Shown here: positions 5,768-33,716 of the stretch, piece after piece
Numbering within the stretch: the stretch's first letter is position 1
How the letters are laid out: every line of letters begins with the position of its first letter
NCBI GenBank assembly: GCA_028877205.1
Contig: JAPPHY010000010.1
Coordinates: 14,294-48,916 of the forward strand
Length of the DNA stretch: 34,623 nt
Reading direction: 5' to 3'
From: Chloroflexota bacterium
Lineage (GTDB): Bacteria; Chloroflexota; Dehalococcoidia; Lucifugimonadales; UBA2985
Notes under the pieces: generated by a model
Database searches by the model: none
Told to the model about the DNA's origin: nothing
What the model saw: only the letters and a program-made list of their open reading frames with translations
Position numbers and translations under genes: made by a program

Positions 5768-8386
5768 CTACTGCTCGATCACCGTGTTGCCTTCGTCGGT
5801 GCTGACCGGCTCCGAGAACTCGGCGTATGTCAGCGTTGCTGTGGTAACCGTGTCCTTCCTCAGCTCGCCTTCGGCCAAGTCGTTTGCCGTCACCGTAATG
5901 GTGAAGCTGAAGCTATCGCCCGTGGCCAGCGCCTCGCCGTGGTTGTAGGTCACGGTTGCCGCATCTGCGTCGATCGTTGCCTTCGGCTCCGCGTCCGGGT
6001 CAGCGGTGACGCCTTCGGCTAGGACCTCCGCCGCGGAGTCGATGGTGAACTGAGCCGGAATGTCCACTACCACGTTCACATCGGTCATCGGCGACCTACC
6101 CTGGTTGCTCACGGTCACCGTGAAGGTGACATTCTCACCCTCCCTGACCGGGTCGAAGTCGTCGGTGATGGCGATTGTGGCGCCGGGTGCGGGTAGGATG
6201 CTCACTTCCAGCACGGCCTCCAGCACGGATGCCGGCATGGTCTCTGTGCTGACCTGCTCAGCGGCGGTTACACTGGCGGTATTCGTCATTGTGCCCGACT
6301 CGTCGCCTTGCAGCGTGAGGGTAACCTCGGCCTGTGCATCGACTGCCAGGTCGCCGATCTCCCAGGTTACCGTGTTGGTGTCCTCGTCGAACACACCGCC
6401 ATTGCTGGAGCTCACATAGGACATGCCAGTTGCGAATGTGTCGCTTATGGTCACGCCTGTCAGTGGCGCCTCACCGTTGTTGGTGGCGGTCAACGTGTAG
6501 GTCACCTCGTTGCCCACGAAGATCGCCGTGCGTCCGGTCTTCTCGATCGTGATTGCGGGCACCTCTACGGTGGTGGACGTCTCGGTTTCGACCGTCGCTG
6601 CAGCGTTATCGGCTGTGACGGACGCCTCGTTCACCTGGGCGCCTGCCGTGGTCGCCAAAACTGTCAGCGTGAAGGTGGATGACGCTCCGGGGTTCATGTT
6701 GCCGACGCTCCAGGTCACCGTGTCGCCGGCTTCTGAGACCGTCCCTGCCGGATCGCTGCTGACGTACTCAAGGCCCGCAGGCAGAGTGTCAACTACCGTG
6801 GTGTTGTTGGCGACACCGTTGCCGTTGTTGGTGACCGTTATGGTGTACTCGAAGTTTTCGCTCAGCAGAGCCGTTCCACTTTCCGGTCCCTCCTTGGTGA
6901 TTGCGAGCTCAGGCTGAAGGACCGTGGTCATAGCCTGGGCGGTGGCCTCGGCGCCCTCCGTGGAGGTCACCCTCACCTCATTGGTCCAGTCGCCTGCCTG
7001 GTTGGCCTGCAGGACTACTGTAATGTCAATTGTTGCCGGCGGGCTCAGCGCACCCAGCTCAAACGCCAGCTGATTGCCGCTCTGGGTGCCCGCAGGATCG
7101 GAGCTGACCAGGCTCATGCCGGCCGGTATGGTGTCCACCAGCCTTACGCCTGTGCTTGCGCCGGTGCCGGTACCACTCACCCGAATTGCGTAAGTGGCTT
7201 CGCCGCCGATGTCAACCTGGGCAGGTCCGGTCTTGGTCACTTCCAAACCACCGGCCAGGACCTCCGTGGAGCTGGTCTCTTCGTCGCTGAGTCCTTCGGC
7301 CGACTCTGCCCTGTAATTGACTTCGAATTCACCCACTCGCACGCCCTGGGCCGTCAGCTGCACCGAGGCGGTGCCGTCGATCTCAATGGTGCCGAGATCC
7401 CAGGTTACGACCGAGTTGCTCTCCGTGCCGTCCCCTGTGGAGGACACGTAGGCCATGCCGGCGGGCAGTGTTGCTACAAGCTGGGTGCCCGTGGCATCGC
7501 GGTTGCCGGTGTTGGTGACGGTGATGTCAAACGTTACTTCAGCCAGCAGACCGATCTGACCGGAGACGCTGGTGACTTCGACATCCAGAACAGCCTGCTT
7601 CCACTGCTTCCGCATGGTGTGGGAGAACATGGTCTTGCCATCCGGCGTCAACACCTCAATGAACACGCTGTTGTCGCCGATGAACGTGTCTATCTGTTCA
7701 AGCGTAACGGCAGCCTCGCCGGAGGCATTGGTTGTGGTTACGATGTCGTTGCTGTCCTCTGAAGCGTTGGCGAACCGGGCGTTCGGGTCGTCATCAACTA
7801 TGGTCCAGCGGACGGACGTGCCCTGGACAGGTGCGCCGTCCGAAACATTGTTGATGGTTACGCTCATGGGGTGAGGCGTTCCGAAGCGATTCTCTGCATC
7901 GCCCGGGAACACAGGACACCCGTCCACCCAGTGCACAACGCCAAAGTCCTTGTGGGTGTTCCTGTCCTGAATGCCTGGTGCGAAAGCCGTTACGTCGGTG
8001 TCGCCAGGACGTGAGGCTACCAGCGTTGCGGTGGCCTGTCCGTCTGAGTTGGTGTTCACAATTGCGAAGTCGTTCGTCATCTTCATCGGGCTCGTGTTGC
8101 CCGTTACTTCGACGATGTCACCGACCGCATCCGGGAACCGGTTGAGGAAGAATTCGATGCGTCCGTTTGCCGCGGCTGCCTCGCCAGCTGCCAGGTTGGC
8201 GGTAACGTCGTGCTGGTTGAGAATGCACTCCCACGACTCCGAGGGGCTCAGCGACACCATAGTAGGTGTGCTGGTTTGGGAACTTGTGGAGCTTTGGGGG
8301 TCGGCTGCAGTGGCATTGCCAATCAGTCCAACCACCAGGAGAAGTAGCCCCATCGCGGGCAAGGCCAATCGCTTCGCATTGAGCAT
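5768..8386 (-). CDS. Secreted protein with tandem DUF11 (conserved repeat) domains
   Basis: 872 aa. A signal peptide is clear (basic MLNAKR, hydrophobic core LPAMGLLLLVVGLIG, then ATAAD). Residues about 30-265 form an Ig-like part with two cysteines and bacterial Ig-type strands (SVRWTIVDDD, GEAAVTL). From about residue 270 to the end come five tandem DUF11-type beta-sandwich repeats of roughly 105-140 residues. Each has the signature TVTNTGN or TVTNNGN, then LPAGMxYVSS, then VTWxxG. No C-terminal anchor, sortase motif or transmembrane helix follows, so the protein is probably released or held by other wall components. The start is supported by GAGGTG seven bases before ATG. A good promoter lies 60 bases upstream and a strong terminator downstream, so it is a monocistronic, probably well-expressed structural surface gene. 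Confidence 0.9.
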   Translation of the reverse strand: MLNAKRLALPAMGLLLLVVGLIGNATAADPQSSTSSQTSTPTMVSLSPSESWECILNQHDVTANLAAGEAAAANGRIEFFLNRFPDAVGDIVEVTGNTSPMKMTNDFAIVNTNSDGQATATLVASRPGDTDVTAFAPGIQDRNTHKDFGVVHWVDGCPVFPGDAENRFGTPHPMSVTINNVSDGAPVQGTSVRWTIVDDDPNARFANASEDSNDIVTTTNASGEAAVTLEQIDTFIGDNSVFIEVLTPDGKTMFSHTMRKQWKQAVLDVEVTSVSGQIGLLAEVTFDITVTNTGNRDATGTQLVATLPAGMAYVSSTGDGTESNSVVTWDLGTIEIDGTASVQLTAQGVRVGEFEVNYRAESAEGLSDEETSSTEVLAGGLEVTKTGPAQVDIGGEATYAIRVSGTGTGASTGVRLVDTIPAGMSLVSSDPAGTQSGNQLAFELGALSPPATIDITVVLQANQAGDWTNEVRVTSTEGAEATAQAMTTVLQPELAITKEGPESGTALLSENFEYTITVTNNGNGVANNTTVVDTLPAGLEYVSSDPAGTVSEAGDTVTWSVGNMNPGASSTFTLTVLATTAGAQVNEASVTADNAAATVETETSTTVEVPAITIEKTGRTAIFVGNEVTYTLTATNNGEAPLTGVTISDTFATGMSYVSSSNGGVFDEDTNTVTWEIGDLAVDAQAEVTLTLQGDESGTMTNTASVTAAEQVSTETMPASVLEAVLEVSILPAPGATIAITDDFDPVREGENVTFTVTVSNQGRSPMTDVNVVVDIPAQFTIDSAAEVLAEGVTADPDAEPKATIDADAATVTYNHGEALATGDSFSFTITVTANDLAEGELRKDTVTTATLTYAEFSEPVSTDEGNTVIEQ

Positions 8387-12369: not shown

Positions 12370-13701
12370 ATGGGAGAAAGCACCAACGCCCTCGCCACGC
12401 TCCGTTTCGACCGCCGTATACGACTGGAGTTCCACGGCGCCACTATTAGCTCGGACGCTAGACTGTTGGCCTGTCGTGACTTGGACGATGCGATGGGACT
12501 GACGGAGATGGTGAGTGAGCATTTGCAGGAGAGTCGGGGCGGCCGAAACGTGCAGCACCGACTGGTGGGCCTTCTCAGACAGTCGGTGTACAGTCGTCTA
12601 GCGGGCTACGAGGATACCAACGACGCTGTACGGCTGTCGGACGATCCGACGATGCGGGTGATCGTCGGGGACCGAGGGGTAGACAGACCGGCGGCGAGCG
12701 CTAGCGCCATGAGCCGGTTCGAGACCGGGGTACTCACACAAGACGCCAACGAGGACGGTTTGGATCGACTGAACGCTGCGTGGGAGTACCGCGCAATGAC
12801 GCACACGGCTCACCGGCGGGTGATCTTGGACATGGACAGTTCGGAGAGTCCGGTGCATGGAGAACAGGAGGGAGGGTCGTACAACGGTCACTTTGAGAGC
12901 ACGTGCTATCACCCTCTGTTCGTGTTCAACCAGTTCGGTGACTGCGAGGGCGCGATGCTGCGTGCGGGGAAGGTGCATAGCGCGCACAGGTGGCGCGATG
13001 TGTTGGATCCGATCCTGTCGCGCTACGAGAGGACGGGAGTGCGCCGGTACTTTCGGGCCGATGCCGCTTTCGCCAAGCCGGACATCTATGAGTACCTGGA
13101 GGAACGGCGAGTCTTCTACGCAATACGTCTTCCGAGCAACGAAGTGCTGCAATGGGAGATCGCACCCCTGCTGATACGACCTGTGGGGAGGCCGCCGAAG
13201 CGACCAGTGATCCTGTACGACGACTTTTGGTATCGTGCCGGGAGTTGGGACCGTGCGCGGCGAGTGGTGGCGAAGGTGGAGTGGCACCAGGGAGAGTTGT
13301 TCCCTCGGGTGGGCTTCATCGTCACGAACATGACGGCTGGCCCCGAAGGAGTGGTGCGATTCTACAATGGACGCGGGACAGCCGAGCAGTGGATCAAGGA
13401 GGGGGAGTACGCGTTGAAGTGGACTCGGCTGTCGTGCCATCGGTTCGTTGCCAACCGGGTGCGTCTGTCGCTGTTCGTCCTGGCGTATAATCTTGGGAGC
13501 TTCCTTCGCCGGCTGTGTCTGCCTAAGGCGGTGAGGCACTGGTCGCTGAGGAGCGTGCAAGTCAAGCTGATCAAGATGGGAGGCCGTCTGGTACGGCACG
13601 CACGGCGGTTGATCTTTCAGTTGTGCGAGGTGTCGGTATCTGTGAGGTTGTTCCAAAGCGTGCTGGAACGTATCGGGCGATTATCGCCAGCGCCAAGCTG
13701 A
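12370..13701 (+). CDS. IS1380-family transposase
   Basis: 443 aa, full length for the family, with no frameshift or internal stop. The DDE transposase core is recognisable. The first aspartate lies in VILDMDSSESPVHGEQEG, followed by the family's tract SYNGHFESTCYHPLFVF. The second aspartate is in YFRADAAFAKPDIYEYLE, and the glutamate in NGRGTAEQWIKEGEYALKW. The N-terminal region NALATLRFDRRIRLEF and the LAGYEDTNDAVRL segment also fit. GGAGG lies six bases before the ATG. The enzyme would cut and reinsert its own element at the inverted repeats. Base composition is lower in GC than the flanking genes, consistent with recent arrival. Confidence 0.93.
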   Translation: MGESTNALATLRFDRRIRLEFHGATISSDARLLACRDLDDAMGLTEMVSEHLQESRGGRNVQHRLVGLLRQSVYSRLAGYEDTNDAVRLSDDPTMRVIVGDRGVDRPAASASAMSRFETGVLTQDANEDGLDRLNAAWEYRAMTHTAHRRVILDMDSSESPVHGEQEGGSYNGHFESTCYHPLFVFNQFGDCEGAMLRAGKVHSAHRWRDVLDPILSRYERTGVRRYFRADAAFAKPDIYEYLEERRVFYAIRLPSNEVLQWEIAPLLIRPVGRPPKRPVILYDDFWYRAGSWDRARRVVAKVEWHQGELFPRVGFIVTNMTAGPEGVVRFYNGRGTAEQWIKEGEYALKWTRLSCHRFVANRVRLSLFVLAYNLGSFLRRLCLPKAVRHWSLRSVQVKLIKMGGRLVRHARRLIFQLCEVSVSVRLFQSVLERIGRLSPAPS

Positions 13702-17941: not shown

Positions 17942-18262
17942 CTACCCTCCAGGCGGCCGGTAATTCACGGCGCGGCGTGTGGCCTCGTCTATGGTCTCAG
18001 GCGTGATCAGGACGGTGATTCTGGCTACAATCGCGCCGGCGGATGAGACCGCCATCGACGCGGCGGCCGCCGCGGCGTCGTCGGGAAGGTCCACGATCAT
18101 GTACAGGTCCTCGGCCCCGAACCCATAGTAGAAGGCCTCCAGCGACCCGCCCATGTCGGCAAACATTCGCTCAAACATAGCACGGCGTCCCGTACCGCCC
18201 TCGCGCTGCAGTCCCGCGATCCCCTCCGTTGTGTAGTCTGCCTGGAACAGATACTTCGACAT
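17942..18262 (-). CDS. GYD domain protein
   Basis: 106 aa from the ATG at 18262, with a strong GGGAGG six bases upstream; the longer open frame to 18502 is rejected. The GYD family (PF08734) features are YLFQADYTTEGIAGLQREGG at the start, then MFADMGGSLEAFYYGFGAEDLYMIVDLPD in the middle and an alanine-rich stretch with a GAIVARITVLITPETIDEA end. The fold is a ferredoxin-like dimer with no firmly known enzymatic role. The gene converges with the sterol-reductase homologue: 51 bases separate the stops, with a 7-bp inverted repeat (17902-17908 with 17940-17946). Confidence 0.9.
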   Translation of the reverse strand: MSKYLFQADYTTEGIAGLQREGGTGRRAMFERMFADMGGSLEAFYYGFGAEDLYMIVDLPDDAAAAAASMAVSSAGAIVARITVLITPETIDEATRRAVNYRPPGG

Positions 18263-18380
18263 ACTCGTCCTCCCCGCGGTGATGGCTGAAATATACCAGA
18301 AGTTGCCGCCGCGGCTCAACGAGTAGCCTAGTCCGTGCCAGTTACGGATGCGCGGGTAGCCCGGCGTACGATCCCACTTC

Positions 18381-20198
18381 CTACGGAGCGATGCGGACGG
18401 TGATGATGTCCGTGTTGTGGAACTGCTGGTGCCTGACGGATGAAGCGTATGCGCGAAGCAGCTGAAGTGACAGGTCCTGTTCCACCACGTTGTCAGAGTC
18501 AAACTGCTGAAGCTGGCGCAGCCTGTCCTCCATGTTCCCCTCGTCTCCGGCCCCGCCTATGAACTCCAGGGTGGCCACGGGGCCGTCGCTTGAGGCCAGG
18601 ACCACGAGCTGCCGTTCAGGCTTCGGGTCCTCCTCCTCGGCGGACTCGTCGTCCTGGGCGGCAAGCTCGCCGAAGTCCAGCGGCGCGAGGGTCAGGAGCG
18701 TCTCTTCGGCAACGGCGCTCAGGCGCTCTCGCATGGCCGTGTCCCATCCGCGGCGGCCGGCGAACTTCTCCAGGAAGTCGTTGAGCTCCGGCAGGGCATC
18801 GATGTGGAGGCGCGAGTGGAACCGCATTCCGCGGGGGTTGGTGAACTCCAGATAGAGGATCATCACGATCGCTGCCACGCCTCCCGTGGTTATCCCGCTC
18901 TGCAGCAGCGCACCCCACACCGGCACAATCTCGGGAAACGAGAACAGGCCGAACTGGAAGGCCGCGCCGATCCAGAAGCACACTCCCGCCACCGTTATCC
19001 TCTGCCTGTTCGGCTCGCTCTGAATGACTGTCCTCGCACCGTCGACGAACAGGTATGCGCTCAGCACTATCAGGTAGCCCGCCATGACCGAGCCTGGGAT
19101 CGAGCTCAGCAGCCCGGACACCTTGGGCAGAAAGGCCAGCGCGATCAGCATTCCGCCTATGAGGTATCCGACCCTTAGTGAAGCAACGCCGGTTGTCTGG
19201 GTGTAGGACACGGCTCCCGGATTGACGATATACGGCATCGTTCCCCCGATACCGGCGAACAGGTTGGTGACGCCCGTGCCGGCCAGCGCCGCCTGTACCT
19301 CTCGAAAGTCGACTGCTCGAGCGTCCCGCCTTGAGACCCGTTGCTGAGCAATCGACTCGCCGTTGACCTGTATGGAAATGATCACGCTGAGGAAAAGGAA
19401 TGCGGGAAGGAGCGTCCAGAACGTTACGCCAAGACCGGAAACCACCGGGGGCCAGTCAAGGCCCGGCCACTCGCCGGGCAGCCCTACCCACGCAGCTTCC
19501 CTGACTTGCCCGCTGTCATAGAGGCCGAACGCTGCGGCGACGGCCGACCCGGCCACTATGCCGATAATCGGGCCCCAGAGTCGCACCACGGCCGAACCCC
19601 GAAGGATGAGGGCCGAGACGATGCCGAGCGTGGCCAGCGCCGCGACGTGCGCTCCGAGTGCGTCGCTATCGGAGGCTTCCGGCAGCAGCCGGGGCACCAC
19701 GGAGGCCAGCGTGATCGACAGGATCATGAGCACCGTCCCGCCCACCACCGGCGTGACTATGCGCCGCAGTATGAACAGCCACTTGGCGATGGCGATCTGG
19801 CCAATGCCGCAAACGATGACAAGAGCGGCCAGGGTCGCAGGCCCGCCATCCGAGACCGCGTCTATACAGAAGGGTATGGAGAAGGCGGCCGTAAACATGG
19901 GCAGCATTGCCCTAGCACCAACAACTCCCACGCTGCGCACCTGCATCATCGTTGTCAGGCCGGCAACAAGCAGGGACGCAAATACAACCCACACCAGGTA
20001 CGAATCGTCACGACCAGACGCCTTGGCGACCACGACCGGTGTCACCAGCAGCGTGGCAGACGCAATCAGGCTGAACTGGGCGCCGTAACCGAGGGAAGCA
20101 AGGAGAGGAGGACTCTCATGCGCTTCGTAGCGGGGCTGCTGTTGGGCTTGAGTAGACAATCTCGATTCCCGATTGCGCCGCTCTGCCGATGTACTCAC
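18381..20198 (-). CDS. NCS2-type nucleobase permease with C-terminal HATPase-like regulatory domain
   Basis: 605 aa, about 150 longer than a plain permease. Residues 25-455 are the NCS2 (xanthine/uracil permease) membrane domain. Recognisable parts are GARAMLPMFTAAFSIPFCID, QVNGESIAQQRVSRRDAR and GTGVTNLFAGIGGTMPYIV, followed by NPGAVSYTQTTGVASLRVG. Residues about 465-605 are soluble. LPELNDFLEKFAGRRGWDT, RERLSAVAEETLL and later VATLEFIGGAGDEGN have the rhythm of an RsbW-like HATPase, but the N-box asparagine is missing and the glycine motifs are poor, so ATP binding is unlikely. An acidic loop (DDESAEEEDPK) interrupts it. The start is a GTG at 20198, without a clear ribosome-binding site. 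Substrate is unproven: uracil, xanthine or another nucleobase. Confidence 0.85.
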   Translation of the reverse strand: MSTSAERRNRESRLSTQAQQQPRYEAHESPPLLASLGYGAQFSLIASATLLVTPVVVAKASGRDDSYLVWVVFASLLVAGLTTMMQVRSVGVVGARAMLPMFTAAFSIPFCIDAVSDGGPATLAALVIVCGIGQIAIAKWLFILRRIVTPVVGGTVLMILSITLASVVPRLLPEASDSDALGAHVAALATLGIVSALILRGSAVVRLWGPIIGIVAGSAVAAAFGLYDSGQVREAAWVGLPGEWPGLDWPPVVSGLGVTFWTLLPAFLFLSVIISIQVNGESIAQQRVSRRDARAVDFREVQAALAGTGVTNLFAGIGGTMPYIVNPGAVSYTQTTGVASLRVGYLIGGMLIALAFLPKVSGLLSSIPGSVMAGYLIVLSAYLFVDGARTVIQSEPNRQRITVAGVCFWIGAAFQFGLFSFPEIVPVWGALLQSGITTGGVAAIVMILYLEFTNPRGMRFHSRLHIDALPELNDFLEKFAGRRGWDTAMRERLSAVAEETLLTLAPLDFGELAAQDDESAEEEDPKPERQLVVLASSDGPVATLEFIGGAGDEGNMEDRLRQLQQFDSDNVVEQDLSLQLLRAYASSVRHQQFHNTDIITVRIAP

Positions 20199-20349
20199 GT
20201 CGTGCAGAGAAGATCCGCGTATACTCTACCACAGTCAGAACGTCTCTGAGCTTGGGTAGACTGTGGCCCCGAGCCGCGACTGTTGAAGCACCCGATTGAC
20301 GGGAGTTGGCGGGGGTCTATTGGGAGGGGAAGTTCTCCTGCAACAGTTG

Positions 20350-21594
20350 CTATTGTGACAGAAGCCAGTCCAGCAGAGCGTCCAGGAACGCCTCGCCGTA
20401 GCCGGGTGAATGGCCGCTGCCTTCGCCGACCCAGAAATCGATTGTGATGCCCTCGGCGCAGCCCGACTCCAGGCGGAATGCTTGCGTCTCGGCGCCCGGC
20501 ACGTACCGGTCGAGGTCGAGGGCGGCATAGGGCTGGAGGTACTCGGGCCAGTCGCAGCCCGCACGCCGGCTCCAGCGCGTCACCGTCTCCTGAGCACCGG
20601 CGTAGTATGCCCTCATGCCGTCGCCTATCTGGACCGCCTCGATTTCATCTCCCTCAAACAAGATTACGCCGTCTGCGGTGCCATGAATGTGCAGCACGGA
20701 CACGGGCGGCGCGCCTTCGCAACTGGAGTCCTCCACGTAGCTTGTGCCGGCCAGGCTGGCCACGGCGCGGAGGCCCGGCAGTCCCTTGCAGGCAACGTGG
20801 TACGACATGAACCCGCCGTTGGAGTATCCGAAGAAGTACACCGGACCGAACCTCCTTACCTCACTTGCACTGGCCACTAGCTCAGTCAGGTAAGCGACGT
20901 CGTCCTGTCCGGTCTTGCCGCCCTCGCAGCACCGATCGGTTGGGTTCCAGAAGGTGATTCCCTCGCTGCTGGATGCTCCGGTGGGGAGCAGGAGGGCAAA
21001 CCCGTCGCTGTTCACCCGCTCGTGAAGGGGCATGTACGCGGAGTGGCTGGCGGCGTCTCCTCCAAAGCCGTGAAGGGAAACTATGAGCGGGGTTTCACCG
21101 TCGACAAATCCCACGGGCGTCACCAGGACCGCGGGCACTTCCCGGTCGGGGTGGTCCAGGTAGGAGACCTGCCCCCCGAATTCCTCCGCAAGCGTTGCGG
21201 CCGCTTCATGAACGGCGCCGTCCGGCAATGAAGGTTTCTCTGCCTCGCTCTTTGACCACGAGTCCTTATCGGGTAATTCCGTCTCAGCTGCGGAGACTGC
21301 CTCCTCAAGTTCCTGAATCCTGGCCTCCAACTCGTCCAGGCCCTCGCGGAGGGTAGCCAGTTCGCCCTTCAGCTCAGCGTTATCGTTCTGCAGGGTCTTG
21401 ATTGTCTCTTCCTGAGCGTGAGTCTTCTTCTCTAGCTCCAGCACTTCCTCGTCTCTCTCAGAATTATCAGCTCCACTGGCACAAGAAAGCATCGAGGCGG
21501 CCAGGAGAATGCCTACCGCAACCACACCTGGATGACGCAGAATGGCGACGCGAATGGACGCCAGAGCTTGGATGACGCTTATGTGCCATCCCAT
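20350..21594 (-). CDS. Lipoprotein carboxylesterase of the PHB-depolymerase/LpqC type with coiled-coil stalk
   Basis: 414 aa from the ATG at 21594. A lipoprotein signal is clear: hydrophobic VVAVGILLAASMLSC with Cys38 as the lipidated residue. Residues 48-105 form a coiled coil (heptads such as ELEKKTHAQEETIKTLQ), a stalk lifting the enzyme from the membrane. Residues 140-414 are an alpha/beta hydrolase of the poly(3-hydroxybutyrate)-depolymerase/feruloyl-esterase type. Its features are PLIVSLHGFGG (oxyanion region), nucleophile Ser258 in FGYSNGG, Asp308 in HGTADGV and His395 in GSGHSPGY. Extracellular ester cleavage is likely; the natural substrate is unknown. It starts 26 bases after the stop of SulP copy 2, so the two are probably cotranscribed. 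The ribosome-binding site is weak, and the longer frame to 21777 overlaps SulP coding sequence and is rejected. Confidence 0.85.
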   Translation of the reverse strand: MGWHISVIQALASIRVAILRHPGVVAVGILLAASMLSCASGADNSERDEEVLELEKKTHAQEETIKTLQNDNAELKGELATLREGLDELEARIQELEEAVSAAETELPDKDSWSKSEAEKPSLPDGAVHEAAATLAEEFGGQVSYLDHPDREVPAVLVTPVGFVDGETPLIVSLHGFGGDAASHSAYMPLHERVNSDGFALLLPTGASSSEGITFWNPTDRCCEGGKTGQDDVAYLTELVASASEVRRFGPVYFFGYSNGGFMSYHVACKGLPGLRAVASLAGTSYVEDSSCEGAPPVSVLHIHGTADGVILFEGDEIEAVQIGDGMRAYYAGAQETVTRWSRRAGCDWPEYLQPYAALDLDRYVPGAETQAFRLESGCAEGITIDFWVGEGSGHSPGYGEAFLDALLDWLLSQ

Positions 21595-21620
21595 GGCGAA
21601 CGCAGGCAACAACCTCGCCC

Positions 21621-23249
21621 TCACGCCGTGTCCGTCGGGTTCAGACCCAGGAGCCGTCCCGCAATCTCGCGGGCCCCATCGATGTCGTCCGCGAAGTGGT
21701 CTTCGGGTATCTGCTGCAGGGCGTTGAGAGCGCGCAGGGTGATGGCGGGCTGGTCGAACAGGCCCATCACAACGCACTGGGTGTTCTCGGCGATGGCGGT
21801 GTCGATAAGCTCCTCCACGACCAGCGAGGCGCTGTCGTCCATGTAGGCCGTGTCGGAGAAGTCGAAGATCACCACGTCGTGCTCAGTGATGTCCTTGCTG
21901 ATGGTGCTTATCAGCTTGTGAGAAGAAGCCACCGTGAACACGCCGCGCAGGATCACCATGCCTACGTGGGCCGAATGGTCGTCCGCCTCCAGCTTGTAAT
22001 CTCCCCTGAAGAAGACCTCGTCCAGGATCGGCACGGATACCACGTTGTCCATCTGGAGCCGCTCGAACCTCCTTGAGGTCGCCATACCGGCCGCGATGAG
22101 TCCCACCGCCACGGCGGTCACCAGGTCTATGAACACGGTCAGGAGCAGGGTGATTACCATGACCGCGAGATGCTCGCGCTGTACTCGCATGATGCGGGTC
22201 AGGAATCGCCAGTCGATGATGTCCCAGCCCACTTTCAAGAGGATGCCCGCCAGGCAGGCGTGAGGGATTACCTCGACGTATTTGGCCAGGCCCAACACCA
22301 GCGCAAGCAGTATTCCCGCGCAGATGACGCCGGCTACCGGTGTCCTGCCGCCGGCGCGGATGTTGATTACCGTGCCCATCGTTGCCCCTGCGCCGGGCAG
22401 CCCGCCAAGGAATCCCGCGGCCACGTTTCCAATGCCCTGTCCCACCAGTTCCCTGTTGGCGCTGTGCTGTGTCCGCGTCATGGAGTCCGCAATGAGCGCC
22501 GTCAACAAACTGTCGATGGAGCCTAGCATCGCGAGGGTGAGCGCGGGAGTTACGGCCTGTGCCAGAATCCCGAGCGACAGGTCAGGCAGCTGCGGCGCGG
22601 GCAGGCCGGTGGGCACGTTGCCGATGACGGGCACGTCCGTGAGCCACAGCACCCCCATCATTGTGCCTGCCACCAGAGCGGCAAGGGTCGGGGGGATGTA
22701 GCGCCGGAGCCGCCCGGGCCACAGGATGCCCACCGCCAGCGTGACGGCCGCGATTGCAAAGGCGCTTGCGTTGAAGTCGGTTATGCCGTCCGCCCAGCCT
22801 CTGATCGAGGCGACGGGTCCCTCCGCCACCGGGGTACCCATGAATGGCAGGGTCTGCAGCAGGATTATGATGATGCCGATGCCCGACATGAAGCCGGAGA
22901 TGACAGAGTAGGGCGTGAACGCGATGAACCGGCCGATACCCACGAGGCCCAACAGCACCTGCAAGAGCCCGGCCATGATTACGATGGTGAACGCGGCAGC
23001 GAGATTGTCAGCGTGGAGCGTGACGACGGCGGCCATTGCAATGGCCATAGGGCCGGTAGGTCCGGAGATCTGAGATTTGGTGCCGCCAAACACCGCCGCG
23101 AAGAACCCTACGGCGATCGCGCCGTAGATGCCCGAGAGCGCTCCGAGACCGGAAGCCTCTCCGAAGGCCAGCGCCACGGGCAAGCTCACCACCGCGGCGG
23201 TGATGCCGCCGAACAGGTCCCCTTTCAGTGAACCTAGGCGCTGTTGCAA
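21621..23249 (-). CDS. SulP-family inorganic anion transporter with STAS domain (copy 2)
   Basis: 542 aa, strongly similar along its whole length to copy 1 (10263-11906): GDLFGGITAAVVSLPVALAFG, GGTKSQISGPTGPMAIAMAA, and a STAS domain with VIFDFSDTAYMDDSASLVV that retains the Asp-Ser. It begins with a TTG at 23249, supported by GGGAG seven bases upstream; no ATG fits before the first helix, and an in-frame TAG lies shortly before. The N-terminus is shorter than in copy 1. It is followed closely by the lipoprotein esterase. A duplication within this region or two independent copies are both possible; the family's usual cargo is sulfate or bicarbonate. Confidence 0.93.
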   Translation of the reverse strand: MQQRLGSLKGDLFGGITAAVVSLPVALAFGEASGLGALSGIYGAIAVGFFAAVFGGTKSQISGPTGPMAIAMAAVVTLHADNLAAAFTIVIMAGLLQVLLGLVGIGRFIAFTPYSVISGFMSGIGIIIILLQTLPFMGTPVAEGPVASIRGWADGITDFNASAFAIAAVTLAVGILWPGRLRRYIPPTLAALVAGTMMGVLWLTDVPVIGNVPTGLPAPQLPDLSLGILAQAVTPALTLAMLGSIDSLLTALIADSMTRTQHSANRELVGQGIGNVAAGFLGGLPGAGATMGTVINIRAGGRTPVAGVICAGILLALVLGLAKYVEVIPHACLAGILLKVGWDIIDWRFLTRIMRVQREHLAVMVITLLLTVFIDLVTAVAVGLIAAGMATSRRFERLQMDNVVSVPILDEVFFRGDYKLEADDHSAHVGMVILRGVFTVASSHKLISTISKDITEHDVVIFDFSDTAYMDDSASLVVEELIDTAIAENTQCVVMGLFDQPAITLRALNALQQIPEDHFADDIDGAREIAGRLLGLNPTDTA

Positions 23250-30492: not shown

Positions 30493-32847
30493 ATGACTAC
30501 AAGAGTATTCAGTTCAGGCATACGCCGGCGCGAGGACCCAAGGCTCATCACGGGCAGGGCCTCCTACACGGACGACATCAAGCTGCCCGGCATGGTGTAC
30601 GCGGCGATACTGCGCAGCATGTACGCGCATGCCAACATCAGGTCGATCGACACCAGCGCGGCGGCCGGCCAGCCCGGCGTGATCGCCGTGTATACCGGCG
30701 CGGACACCGAGGGCGCGCTCAACGGACTCCCGTGTGCGTGGCTGATTCCCAACTCGGACCTGAAGACTCCTGCGCATCCCGCCATCGCGAAGGACCGCGT
30801 ACGCTACGTCGGCGACGCGGTGGCTGTGGTAGTCGCTGAGACGCGCTACCAGGCGGAGGACGCGCTGGAGCACATCGTGGTGGAGTACGAGCCTCTGGAC
30901 GCGGTGCTCAACCCCAAGGACGCCGCTCAGGACGGCGCTCCGCAGCTGCACGATGACGCGCCCAACAACGTCGCCTTCACGTGGGCGGTGGCCGGCGGTG
31001 ACGCCGACGCCGCATTCGCAGACGCGGACGTGACGGTGAGCGACGTCATCACGCTGCCGAGGCTCATCGCCAACCCCATGGAGCCAAGGTCCGCTATCGC
31101 GCAGTGGGTGGGAGCGACCGGTGAGCTCACGCTGTGGAACACCTCACAGAACCCGCACATCGCACGGTTCCTCACGTGCGTCGTGACGGGCGTACCCGAG
31201 CACAAGATTCGGGTCATCGCGCCGGAGGTCGGCGGGGGATTCGGAAGCAAGATCCCGTACTACCCGGACGAGGCCATCACGGCGTTCTGCTCCATGCGCC
31301 TGGGCGTTCCGGTGAAGTGGACGGAGACCAGAAGCGAGAACTACCTTGCCACCACGCAGGGCCGCGACCACATAGAAGAGGTGGAGATGGCGGCCACGTC
31401 GGACGGCAAGATCACGGGGTTGCGCACGACGGTATACGCAGGCCTGGGCGCCTACCTTTCGACGGCGGCCCCCGGCGTCCCGACCATCCTGCACGGGCTT
31501 ATGTACTCCGGCGCCTACGACATTCCCAACATCAGCGGGACCATCTACGGCGTGTTCAACAACGGCACGCCCGTGGACGCCTACCGCGGCGCGGGCCGCC
31601 CGGAGGCCACGACGCTGATCGAGCGGCTCGTGGACGTGCTGGCCGCCGAGCTGGGGATGGACCCGGTCGAGGTGCGCCGGAAGAACCTCATCCCGAAATT
31701 CGAGAACGGGCACGACGTCGTCACCGGCCTCACCTACGACAGCGGAGACTACGGGGCCACTCTCGACACCGTACTGGACGCCGCCGGCTACTCGGCGCTG
31801 CGCGAGGAGCAAGAGCAGGCCCGCGGTGAAGGCCGGCTAATGGGCGTCGGTGTCTCCACCTACGTGGAGATTTGCGGGCTGGGGCCTTCGCAGGTCGCAG
31901 GCGCGGTCGGCTTCCAGGGTGGGCTGTGGGAGAGCGCAATCGTGCGCTTCCACCCGACAGGCAAGGTGAACGTCATGGTAGGCTCATCGCCCCACGGACA
32001 GGGCGAGGAGACCACCTTCGCGCAGATCGTGGCGGAGGAGGTGGGCGTAGGCGTGGACGACGTCGAGATCATCCACGGCGACACCGACCTCACACCGATG
32101 GGCTGGGGCACGTACGGCAGTCGTACCACTGCGGTGTCCGGCGCGGCAGTCACGCTGGCGACGCGCAAGATCAAGGACAAGTCGAAGGCACTGGCCGCAC
32201 ACCTGCTGGAGGCCGCCACCGAGGACATCGAGTACGAGGACGGCCGGTTCTTCGTGCGTGGGTCGCCCGACCAGCACAAGACCATCCAGGACATTGCGCT
32301 GATGGCCAACGTGGCGTGGGACATGCCGGAGGGCATGGAGCCGGGCCTGGAGGCCAGCGCATTCTACGACCCACCGAACTTCACGTACCCGTTCGGGGCG
32401 CACCTGGCGGTCGTGGAGGTTGATCCCGCGACCGGCCAGATTGACCTGCAAAGGTACATCGCCGTCGACGACTGCGGCGTGCAGATCAACCCCATGATTG
32501 TGGAAGGCCAAGTCCACGGCGGCGTCGCGCAGGGGGTGGGGCCGGTGCTGTGGGAGGGCGTCGTGTACGACGAGAGCGGCCAGCCGCTGACCGGGACGAT
32601 GCTGGACTACGCGCTGCCTCGTGCCGACGGCCTGCCGGACATCGAGGTGCAGTCGAACACCACGCCATCGCCTCATCACCCGCTTGGCGTAAAGGGCGTC
32701 GGAGAGGCCGGGACAATCGCTTCCACGCCCACCGTATACAACGCAGTCATGGACGCACTGCGGCCGCTGGGGATCACGCGTATCGACATGCCGTTGACGC
32801 CCGAGAAGGTATGGCGGGCCATGCAGGACGCCAGGAACGGAGGCTAG
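30493..32847 (+). CDS. coxL: Form II CO dehydrogenase-type molybdopterin large subunit
   Basis: 784 aa, the normal length for molybdenum hydroxylase large subunits. The active-site loop reads AYRGAGR at residues 363-369, the hallmark of form II (form I CODH has AYRCSFR with the copper-binding Cys). It also has GGGFGSKI near 245, the SPHGQGEETTFAQIVAEE segment, and the catalytic Glu738 in KGVGEAGT. Form II enzymes are related to CO dehydrogenase, but for many the substrate is unproved and may be another small aldehyde, purine or aromatic. The protein is cytoplasmic or membrane-associated. It binds molybdopterin cytosine dinucleotide and pairs with CoxS and CoxM. The gap to coxM is two bases. 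Confidence 0.95.
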   Translation: MTTRVFSSGIRRREDPRLITGRASYTDDIKLPGMVYAAILRSMYAHANIRSIDTSAAAGQPGVIAVYTGADTEGALNGLPCAWLIPNSDLKTPAHPAIAKDRVRYVGDAVAVVVAETRYQAEDALEHIVVEYEPLDAVLNPKDAAQDGAPQLHDDAPNNVAFTWAVAGGDADAAFADADVTVSDVITLPRLIANPMEPRSAIAQWVGATGELTLWNTSQNPHIARFLTCVVTGVPEHKIRVIAPEVGGGFGSKIPYYPDEAITAFCSMRLGVPVKWTETRSENYLATTQGRDHIEEVEMAATSDGKITGLRTTVYAGLGAYLSTAAPGVPTILHGLMYSGAYDIPNISGTIYGVFNNGTPVDAYRGAGRPEATTLIERLVDVLAAELGMDPVEVRRKNLIPKFENGHDVVTGLTYDSGDYGATLDTVLDAAGYSALREEQEQARGEGRLMGVGVSTYVEICGLGPSQVAGAVGFQGGLWESAIVRFHPTGKVNVMVGSSPHGQGEETTFAQIVAEEVGVGVDDVEIIHGDTDLTPMGWGTYGSRTTAVSGAAVTLATRKIKDKSKALAAHLLEAATEDIEYEDGRFFVRGSPDQHKTIQDIALMANVAWDMPEGMEPGLEASAFYDPPNFTYPFGAHLAVVEVDPATGQIDLQRYIAVDDCGVQINPMIVEGQVHGGVAQGVGPVLWEGVVYDESGQPLTGTMLDYALPRADGLPDIEVQSNTTPSPHHPLGVKGVGEAGTIASTPTVYNAVMDALRPLGITRIDMPLTPEKVWRAMQDARNGG

Positions 32848-32849
32848 AC

Positions 32850-33716
32850 ATGTATCCAGCCAACACAACCTACCATCGCGCAGGTTCAGTGGCTGAGGCG
32901 GTGCAGCTGCTCGCCGACAACGAGGGGGCAAAGGTCCTGGCCGGCGGCCACAGCCTGATTCCGGCGATGAAGCTGCGCTTGGCTGCGCCGCAGGCCCTGG
33001 TGGACATTGGCCACATCGCGGCCCTGAGGGGCATCAGCCTGGAGGGAGGCTCGCTGGTCATCGGCGCGCTGACGAACTTTGCGACCATCGCTTCGAGCGA
33101 GCTGGTGCAGGCCAACGCGCCCGTCCTCGCGGAGGCTACTGGTGTGGTCGGCGACCCGGCCGTGCGGAATCGCGGGACGATCGGCGGCAACGTGTCGCAC
33201 GGTGACCCGGCCTCCGACCCGCCGACCGCTCTGACCGCTCTGGGCGCGACCTACAACGTCAGCGGCCCCGGGGGCGAGCGCAGCATAGCGGCGTCGGACT
33301 TCCCCACAGGGCTGCTGGAGAACGCTCTACAGGACAATGAGATACTGACCGGCGTCTCGGTTCCGGCTCTTGCGCCGGGCAGCGGCTCGGCGTACGTCAA
33401 GTTCCCGCATCCCGCCTCTCGCTATGCCGTTGTCGGCGTTGCCGCGATCGTGGCGTCGCAGGGAGGCAGCTGCTCATCGGCGAGCGTTGTGATCGGCGGC
33501 GTCGAGACGACTCCGACGAGGGCATCCTCGGTCGAGGCGGCGCTGGTTGGGTCGGACCTTGGCAATGACGCTCTGGACGCGGCTGCGGCGGCGGTGGCCG
33601 GCGACTTCACGGGCGACCCGATGAGCGACATCTTCGCCTCCGACGAGTACCGCAGGGCGATGGCGGCCGTTTATCTGCGCCGTGCTCTCGGCATAGCTGC
33701 CTCGCGGGCAGGATAG
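32850..33716 (+). CDS. coxM: CO dehydrogenase-type FAD-binding medium subunit
   Basis: 288 aa from the ATG at 32850, with GGAGG six bases upstream; the longer open frame to 32550 overlaps coxL and is rejected. It is a typical FAD-binding subunit of the PCMH/CO-dehydrogenase flavoprotein type: KVLAGGHSLIPAMKLRLAAP binds the FAD pyrophosphate and TIGGNVSHGDPASDPPTAL the isoalloxazine and ribityl region. The C-terminal CODH flavoprotein domain contains YVKFPHPASRYAVVGVAAIV. It takes electrons from the CoxS clusters and passes them to the respiratory chain. The gene order S-L-M is that of form II clusters (form I is M-S-L). Confidence 0.95.
   Translation: MYPANTTYHRAGSVAEAVQLLADNEGAKVLAGGHSLIPAMKLRLAAPQALVDIGHIAALRGISLEGGSLVIGALTNFATIASSELVQANAPVLAEATGVVGDPAVRNRGTIGGNVSHGDPASDPPTALTALGATYNVSGPGGERSIAASDFPTGLLENALQDNEILTGVSVPALAPGSGSAYVKFPHPASRYAVVGVAAIVASQGGSCSSASVVIGGVETTPTRASSVEAALVGSDLGNDALDAAAAAVAGDFTGDPMSDIFASDEYRRAMAAVYLRRALGIAASRAG

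What the first reader, a model, noticed from the sequence alone, without database searches (positions are those of the whole stretch)
18381..23249. Permease with a degenerate HATPase-like tail close to a STAS-tailed SulP transporter
The NCS2-type permease (18381-20198) carries about 140 extra C-terminal residues with the rhythm of an RsbW-like HATPase, but without the N-box asparagine or clean glycine motifs. SulP copy 2 nearby ends in a STAS domain (RsbV-like) keeping the Asp-Ser that anti-sigma kinases phosphorylate. A HATPase/STAS pair is the regulatory unit of RsbW/RsbV systems. Finding the two as tails of two different membrane transporters 1.4 kb apart on the same strand suggests the tails might interact to coordinate nucleobase and anion transport. 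The domain call on the permease tail is my pattern reading and is the weak point.
Basis: partly seen in the sequence, partly recalled or inferred. Interest (0 to 1): 0.6.

Follow-up and report, generated by a model that had tools for sequence, protein, structure and literature searches.

The report
Permease with dead RsbW-type tail
This nucleobase-type transporter carries a cytoplasmic tail folded like the bacterial anti-sigma kinase RsbW but stripped of its ATP-binding residues; the tail is old and strongly conserved, and its genomes nearly always also hold a stand-alone RsbV/RsbW switch that has no obvious sigma factor to control, so the transporter may be one of that switch's targets.

Summary
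The last ~150 residues of the NCS2 permease (18381-20198, minus strand) fold like RsbW/SpoIIAB/UsfX: Z 14-15.6, and 14.7-17.1 for a paralogue's tail, against 7.8-8.5 for ordinary histidine kinases. A profile of 41 tails matches true RsbW of the same phylum (hhalign score 40.4; best of 100 shuffles 19.4).

In 101 distinct tails the N-box Asn, the DxG Asp and the GxG motif are essentially gone. The catalytic Glu pair and a new set of residues are invariant. It is a conserved pseudo-kinase domain, not a decaying one. All four NCS2 permeases of this genome carry it, as do many Chloroflexota. Proteobacterial relatives carry a similar tail; on a tree of the membrane part alone the tailed permeases separate from untailed ones.

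The proposed pairing with the SulP-STAS neighbour fails: 1 of 32 fetched homologous loci has a SulP nearby. Instead, tailed permeases co-occur with a stand-alone STAS / receiver-PP2C / RsbW module: RsbW in 11 of 12 tailed relatives against 1 of 48 others. Those genomes have no SigB/F/G-type sigma factor.

Most likely the tail is a non-enzymatic docking domain for an RsbV-like STAS protein, or a dimerisation module. Binding is untested.

The parts
18381..20198 (-). NCS2 (SLC23, xanthine/uracil-type) permease with C-terminal pseudo-RsbW domain, 605 aa, GTG start
   Evidence: PF00860 85.9 bits; NF037981 above cut-off; homologues end to end in 12 of 60 relatives
18837..20198 (-). membrane (transport) part of the permease, residues 1-454
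   Evidence: PF00860 covers 38-412; a tree of this part separates tailed from untailed NCS2
18384..18836 (-). pseudo-RsbW tail, residues 455-605: beta1-alpha1-alpha2-beta2-beta3-alpha3-alpha4-beta4-beta5; E498/E499, E545, N555, H590 invariant; N-box Asn, DxG Asp and GxG lost
   Evidence: AF2 pLDDT 78, pTM 0.72; Z 15.6 to UsfX, 15.3 to RsbW; paralogue tail Z 17.1 to RsbW; residue table of 101 tails
21621..23249 (-). SulP copy 2 (BicA-like) with C-terminal STAS domain; neighbour, probably not a functional partner
   Evidence: Sulfate_transp E 2.4e-81, STAS E 5.6e-7; best NCBIfam BicA 488.7 bits, below cut-off 880; neighbourhood not conserved
20350..21777 (-). ORF between permease and SulP2: lipoprotein with coiled coil and alpha/beta-hydrolase-like part; the true start probably lies inside the listed ORF, after the end of SulP2
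   Evidence: weak sub-cut-off Pfam matches to Abhydrolase_2 and Peptidase_S15; sequence
17942..18502 (-). GYD-domain protein downstream of the permease; the domain lies at residues 84-174, so the true start is probably near 18250
   Evidence: PF08734 E 2.1e-22; also downstream of the closest relative L001

Best explanation
The permease belongs to an NCS2 subfamily that fused, probably once and long ago, to an RsbW/SpoIIAB-type domain which then lost ATP binding. Shown here: the fold (by prediction), the loss of ATP-site motifs, the strong conservation of a new residue set, presence on every NCS2 permease of this genome, and co-occurrence with a stand-alone STAS / receiver-PP2C / RsbW module that has no SigB/F/G-type sigma factor. 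Inferred: the tail is a non-enzymatic docking domain for the RsbV-like STAS protein. RsbW would phosphorylate the STAS protein and the PP2C phosphatase would dephosphorylate it in response to the receiver's input; the STAS form with affinity for the tail would bind alpha1/alpha2 of the tail on the cytoplasmic face of the permease dimer and change uptake, or the permeases would act as a sink for the STAS protein.
For: Fold: two models match anti-sigma kinases at Z 14-17, well above general histidine kinases at about 8. Sequence: hhalign tails vs phylum RsbW score 40.4, E 5.7e-6; 100 column shuffles at most 19.4; the tail profile finds the genome's own RsbW at E 2.9e-4 in a small set. Dead ATP site, kept alpha2: N-box Asn position 503 is T50/S21/I21%, Asp position 548 is G47/T21/A17/S10%, GxG is replaced by E-[ILV]-S-[LF]; E498 and E499 are 100%, W485 99%, R492 96%; W, R, E, E are shared with the genome's own RsbW. 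In RsbW-RsbV the equivalent Glu49 touches the phosphorylatable Ser56 and RsbW alpha1-alpha3 contact RsbV (PMC7340262). Selection: median dN/dS 0.10 in the tail, 0.03 in the membrane part. Co-occurrence in 60 relatives: RsbW 11/12 vs 1/48; stand-alone STAS 11/12 vs 2/48. In 81 Chloroflexota genomes RsbW is strong in 9/9 with tailed NCS2 but 5/23 with untailed NCS2 only. Module composition: STAS, receiver+SpoIIE phosphatase, RsbW. No SigB/F/G sigma in the 12 tailed genomes.
Against: No binding or co-folding result. The permeases are not genetically linked to the RsbV/RsbW module (one loose case, L200, about 3.4 kb apart, is within chance). G009 has the module but no tailed permease, so the tail is not its only output; G013 has the tail but no RsbW found (fragmented assembly). 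Genomes are not independent, and large-genome ecotypes share many genes. RsbW dimerises through the same alpha1/beta1 face, so conservation there also fits plain dimerisation.
Confidence: 0.4

Rival explanations
1. The tail is a structural dimerisation or assembly module for the permease. NCS2 carriers work as dimers and RsbW-type domains dimerise through beta1/alpha1; the tail needs no partner protein.
For: RsbW dimerises through alpha1 and beta1 (PMC7340262); UapA homodimerisation is required for function (PMC6597760); the beta1-alpha1-alpha2 half of the tail is its best predicted and most RsbW-like part. SLC26 carriers have a cytoplasmic STAS domain in the same place (established knowledge).
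Against: Does not explain the co-occurrence with the RsbV/RsbW module or the invariant polar set E545, N555, D558, H590 in the C-terminal half.
Confidence: 0.3
2. The former ATP pocket was re-tooled to bind another ligand, for example the transported base or a nucleotide, and the tail feeds this back to the carrier.
For: New invariant polar residues (E545, N555, D558, S577, H590, D597) lie in the half of the fold that forms the nucleotide pocket in RsbW.
Against: The Asp that reads adenine and all phosphate-binding glycines are gone; no coordinates were available to test whether the new residues line one pocket.
Confidence: 0.13
3. One reading: the tail pairs with the STAS tail of the neighbouring SulP transporter to coordinate nucleobase and anion transport.
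For: Same strand, 1.4 kb apart here; one other genome (L004) has a SulP relative next to the tailed permease; SulP STAS keeps Asp-Ser.
Against: 31 of 32 fetched homologous loci lack a SulP within the DNA held; four of 12 tailed relatives have no SulP-STAS match at all.
Confidence: 0.05
4. The tail forms mixed dimers with, or competes with, the genome's true RsbW, tethering the kinase to the membrane instead of binding the STAS protein.
For: Shared W, R, E, E on alpha1/alpha2 with the co-resident RsbW; co-occurrence with RsbW.
Against: No interface comparison could be made; mixed dimers of paralogous RsbW proteins were not looked for in the literature.
Confidence: 0.09

Closest known systems
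RsbW / SpoIIAB / UsfX anti-sigma kinases (PF13581 HATPase_c_2)
   Same: Fold and order of elements, length, catalytic Glu, detectable profile similarity
   Different: N-box Asn, adenine Asp and GxG missing; fused to a transporter; no kinase activity expected
NCS2/SLC23 nucleobase transporters (UraA, XanQ, UapA)
   Same: Membrane domain PF00860; NxGxxxxT-like stretch (NPGAVSYTQ) and NGES stretch are visible in the sequence
   Different: Known members end shortly after TM14; this subfamily has a 150-residue globular tail
SLC26/SulP transporters with C-terminal STAS domain
   Same: Related membrane fold with a cytoplasmic domain of the RsbV-RsbW world in the same position
   Different: STAS there, pseudo-RsbW here: the opposite half of the partner pair
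CbrA / CrbS transceptors (SLC5 symporter fused to histidine kinase)
   Same: Transporter fused to an HATPase-fold signalling domain
   Different: Those have an active, complete histidine kinase and a STAC domain; here a dead RsbW-type domain
Partner switches with non-sigma or unknown targets (SypE/SypA, BtrU/V/W)
   Same: STAS, PP2C and RsbW-type kinase without an evident sigma factor target
   Different: Their outputs are biofilm or secretion; no transporter output was seen in the passages read (PMC8256260)
ChpT-type pseudo-HATPase (HPTransfase, PF10090)
   Same: Degenerate HATPase fold that serves as a protein-protein module; a proteobacterial tailed NCS2 scores weakly to it (E 0.0047)
   Different: ChpT is a soluble phosphotransferase dimer with its own His; structural match to the tail is only Z 6-7

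Membership tests
NCS2 / SLC23 permease (PF00860) | Membrane domain above the curated cut-off | tested here: met
   85.9 bits vs 27; NF037981 45.2 vs 40. Narrower models (pbuX, ncs2) are far below their cut-offs, so the substrate is not assigned
NCS2 / SLC23 permease (PF00860) | Transport of a nucleobase | not testable with these tools
   needs an uptake assay
GHKL / HATPase_c_2 (RsbW-SpoIIAB type) | Bergerat-type fold with RsbW order of elements | tested here: met
   predicted models only; Z 15.6 and 17.1 at best, Foldseek E 2.2e-6 and 1.5e-7
GHKL / HATPase_c_2 (RsbW-SpoIIAB type) | N-box Asn (Mg-ATP) | tested here: not met
   position 503: T50, S21, I21%, Asn in about 1 of 101
GHKL / HATPase_c_2 (RsbW-SpoIIAB type) | DxG Asp that binds adenine | tested here: not met
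   position 548: G47, T21, A17, S10%, no Asp among the listed residues
GHKL / HATPase_c_2 (RsbW-SpoIIAB type) | GxG of the second glycine box | tested here: not met
   positions 575-578 are E-[ILV]-S-[LF]
GHKL / HATPase_c_2 (RsbW-SpoIIAB type) | Catalytic Glu of alpha2 | tested here: met
   E499 invariant in 101 tails, aligned by hhalign to the RsbW Glu
GHKL / HATPase_c_2 (RsbW-SpoIIAB type) | Curated Pfam cut-off | tested here: not met
   no match for the window tail; 2 of 41 tails touch PF13581, best E 0.087
RsbV/RsbW partner-switch component | Binds a STAS protein | not testable with these tools
   co-occurrence only
RsbV/RsbW partner-switch component | Encoded with its STAS partner | tested here: not met
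   SulP-STAS beside 1 of 32 fetched homologues; stand-alone STAS unlinked except about 3.4 kb away in L200
SLC5-type transceptor (CbrA/CrbS) | Active histidine kinase core fused to the transporter | tested here: not met
   no HisKA or HATPase match in the permease; ATP motifs lost

The most novel reading that the evidence does not exclude
A partner-switching module acts directly on membrane transporters: the RsbV-like STAS protein shuttles between a live kinase (RsbW) and several dead RsbW copies built into nucleobase permeases, so that stress signalling sets nutrient uptake after translation, without a sigma factor.
Probability: 0.3. Interest if true: 0.85.

Novelty: new variant of a known kind. 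Interest (0 to 1): 0.6.

Why it matters
Partner switches are known to control sigma factors and a few undefined outputs. An old, conserved, catalytically dead RsbW domain on every NCS2 permease of a genome, found together with an RsbV/RsbW module that has no SigB-type sigma factor, gives a directly testable candidate output: a transporter. It also gives SLC23 carriers a regulatory cytoplasmic domain, matching the STAS domain of their structural cousins SLC26.

Tried and rejected
Chance reading of the tail: rejected by fold, profile and 101-sequence conservation. Pseudogene-like decay of the tail: rejected by dN/dS of about 0.10 and invariant residues. SulP-STAS as partner: rejected on neighbourhood and weaker co-occurrence. 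Sequence search of the tail against the PDB: nothing alone, and only insignificant Erlin-1 matches for the profile. Conserved neighbours: clustering of ORFs in 33 loci found none beyond small groups of loci. Viral contigs: no relative. Plasmids: no match to the window's tail, but tailed NCS2 on three proteobacterial plasmids. Direct profile comparison of Chloroflexota and proteobacterial tails was not convincing (score 18.0 against shuffles up to 16.6); their kinship rests on the membrane-part tree and on each being closer to RsbW than shuffles. Linkage of one tailed permease to the RsbVW module in L200: judged within chance. Literature searches for NCS2 with HATPase, and for SAR202 with RsbW or nucleobase permeases, found nothing. 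Laying out the whole genome for scripts was not available.
Full report
What is there. The ORF 18381-20198 (minus strand, 605 aa) is an NCS2/SLC23 permease: PF00860 covers residues 38-412 with 85.9 bits against a cut-off of 27, and NF037981 is just above its cut-off. Residues 455-605 (window 18384-18836) form a tail that matches nothing in Pfam, NCBIfam or the PDB by sequence on its own. Upstream on the same strand lie a lipoprotein/esterase-like ORF and SulP copy 2 (21621-23249), a BicA-like carrier with a STAS domain that reads YMDDSASLVV. The observation as written is therefore correct.

The fold. AlphaFold2 on an alignment of 41 tails gave pLDDT 78 and pTM 0.72, with the order beta-alpha-alpha-beta-beta-alpha-alpha-beta-beta. 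Foldseek's 19 matches under E 0.001 are all anti-sigma kinases (UsfX, RsbW, SpoIIAB). VIA-align gives Z 14.0-15.6 for these, then SiaB and LvrC at about 11, then generic histidine kinases at 7.8 and below. A second model, of the tail of a paralogue from the same genome without the long acidic loop, is better (pLDDT 83, pTM 0.78) and gives Z 17.1 to B. subtilis RsbW, rmsd 2.1 over 114 residues. Independently of structure, the tail profile compared with an alignment of true RsbW from Chloroflexota gives hhalign score 40.4, E 5.7e-6; 100 column-shuffled controls reach at most 19.4 and the reversed control 17.1.

It is a dead kinase but a living domain. In 101 distinct tails the N-box Asn position is mostly Thr, Ser or Ile, the DxG Asp position is Gly, Thr, Ala or Ser, and the GxG motif is E-[ILV]-S-[LF]. 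These positions bind Mg-ATP and adenine in GHKL proteins (established knowledge of that family), so ATP binding is unlikely. Yet E498, E499, E545, N555 and H590 are invariant, and W485, D558, L581, V588, F546 and S577 are at 98-99%. Median dN/dS over 47 close pairs is 0.10 for the tail and 0.03 for the membrane part. W485, R492, E498 and E499 match the W, R, E, E of the genome's own RsbW, on the helices which in B. subtilis RsbW contact RsbV and form the dimer; RsbW Glu49, equivalent to E499, touches the phosphorylatable Ser56 of RsbV (PMC7340262). The half of the fold that faces the STAS partner is thus better kept than the ATP half; this is an inference from alignment, not from a solved complex.

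Distribution and origin. The window lies in a genome of the SAR202/Dehalococcoidia type (judged from the record titles of its relatives). All four NCS2 permeases of this genome carry the tail. A profile of the tail finds it in 29 of 301 Chloroflexota genomes, up to six copies each, and nearly all hits lie in frames of permease size. Three proteobacterial plasmids (Azospirillum, Thiodictyon, Pseudoroseomonas) encode NCS2 proteins of about 570-595 aa with a similar tail that also resembles RsbW (score 32.1, shuffles at most 17.2) and keeps the Glu while replacing the Asn. On a maximum-likelihood tree of the membrane part only, the tailed permeases of both phyla separate from untailed Chloroflexota NCS2 with support 96/91 (midpoint root). 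A single fusion is the simplest reading, but direct similarity of the two sets of tails is not convincing on its own.

The SulP link. Of 32 homologous loci fetched with up to 6 kb on each side (some cut short by contig ends), only L004 has a SulP relative, divergently placed. No widely conserved neighbour was found.

The RsbV/RsbW link. In the same 60 relatives, tailed permeases occur in 12 genomes; a full-length stand-alone RsbW (E below 1e-20) occurs in 11 of these and in 1 of the other 48 (one-sided Fisher p 4e-10); a stand-alone STAS protein in 11/12 and 2/48 (p 3e-9); SulP-STAS in 8/12 and 4/48 (p 7e-5). Restricted to genomes of 2.4 Mb or more it is 10/10 against 1/9 (p 1e-4). Within the families labelled f1, f7, f11, f15 and f22, tail and RsbW are present together or absent together; f6 is the exception (G009 has RsbW, no tail). 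The exception in the other direction, G013, is an assembly of 340 contigs. It is the tail rather than NCS2 as such that goes with RsbW: in 81 Chloroflexota genomes, strong RsbW is in 9 of 9 with tailed NCS2 but in 5 of 23 with only untailed NCS2 (p 7e-5). These p-values ignore shared descent and are descriptive. In this genome the module reads STAS, receiver+SpoIIE phosphatase, RsbW (L168 6212-8304); in L200 a periplasmic binding protein follows, and L201 holds a HAMP/HisKA sensor kinase beside the module. A SigB/F/G model gives scores above 200 bits only in G039, G029, G050 and G034, none of which has the tail; the tailed genomes show only lower scores (about 140 bits and below), the best of them mostly in long frames typical of housekeeping sigma factors. 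The module's target in these genomes is therefore unknown.

Mechanism. I consider it most likely (0.4) that the tail is a non-enzymatic docking site for an RsbV-like STAS protein, so that the phosphorylation state of that protein, set by RsbW and the PP2C phosphatase, affects the permease or is buffered by it. A plain dimerisation module is the main rival (0.3), then a re-tooled ligand pocket (0.13), mixed dimers with RsbW (0.09) and the SulP pairing (0.05). Shown: predicted fold, motif loss, conservation, distribution, co-occurrence. Inferred: STAS binding, effect on transport, substrate.

Known or new. Each part is a known kind. The combination, an NCS2 carrier with a pseudo-RsbW tail, was not found described in the literature searched. 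CbrA/CrbS are the nearest transporter-kinase fusions and SLC26-STAS the nearest architectural parallel. I file it as a new variant of a known kind.

Noticed in passing
L168 6212-8304; L200 9156-14001; L201 6134-11737; L203 35-6093: A conserved partner-switch locus of SAR202-type genomes: STAS protein, receiver+PP2C phosphatase, RsbW, and in some genomes a Peripla_BP_6 protein and a HAMP/HisKA sensor kinase beside it; no SigB-type sigma factor in the genomes with tailed permeases. Its target is unknown.
   Followed up: partly
window 30493-33716: Molybdopterin hydroxylase subunits (MoCoBD and FAD-binding, xanthine/aldehyde/CO dehydrogenase type) about 10 kb from the permease; could hint at purine-like substrates.
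   Followed up: no
window 12370-13701: Full-length DDE_Tnp_1_4 transposase ORF between SulP copy 1 and the permease region, so the neighbourhood may be recently rearranged.
   Followed up: no
L105 216-4225: Two tailed NCS2 permeases head to head on a Thiodictyon plasmid.
   Followed up: partly
L107 1474-3387: Rhodococcus plasmid NCS2 permease fused to an OHCU decarboxylase (urate catabolism), another C-terminal fusion to an NCS2 carrier.
   Followed up: no
window 5768-8386: 872-aa surface-type protein with about five DUF11 repeats.
   Followed up: no
G144, G128, G183 and other genomes of family f68: Three STAS domains in tandem within about 2 kb (two stand-alone, one in a 309-366 aa frame) in genomes with four to six tailed permeases.
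   Followed up: no
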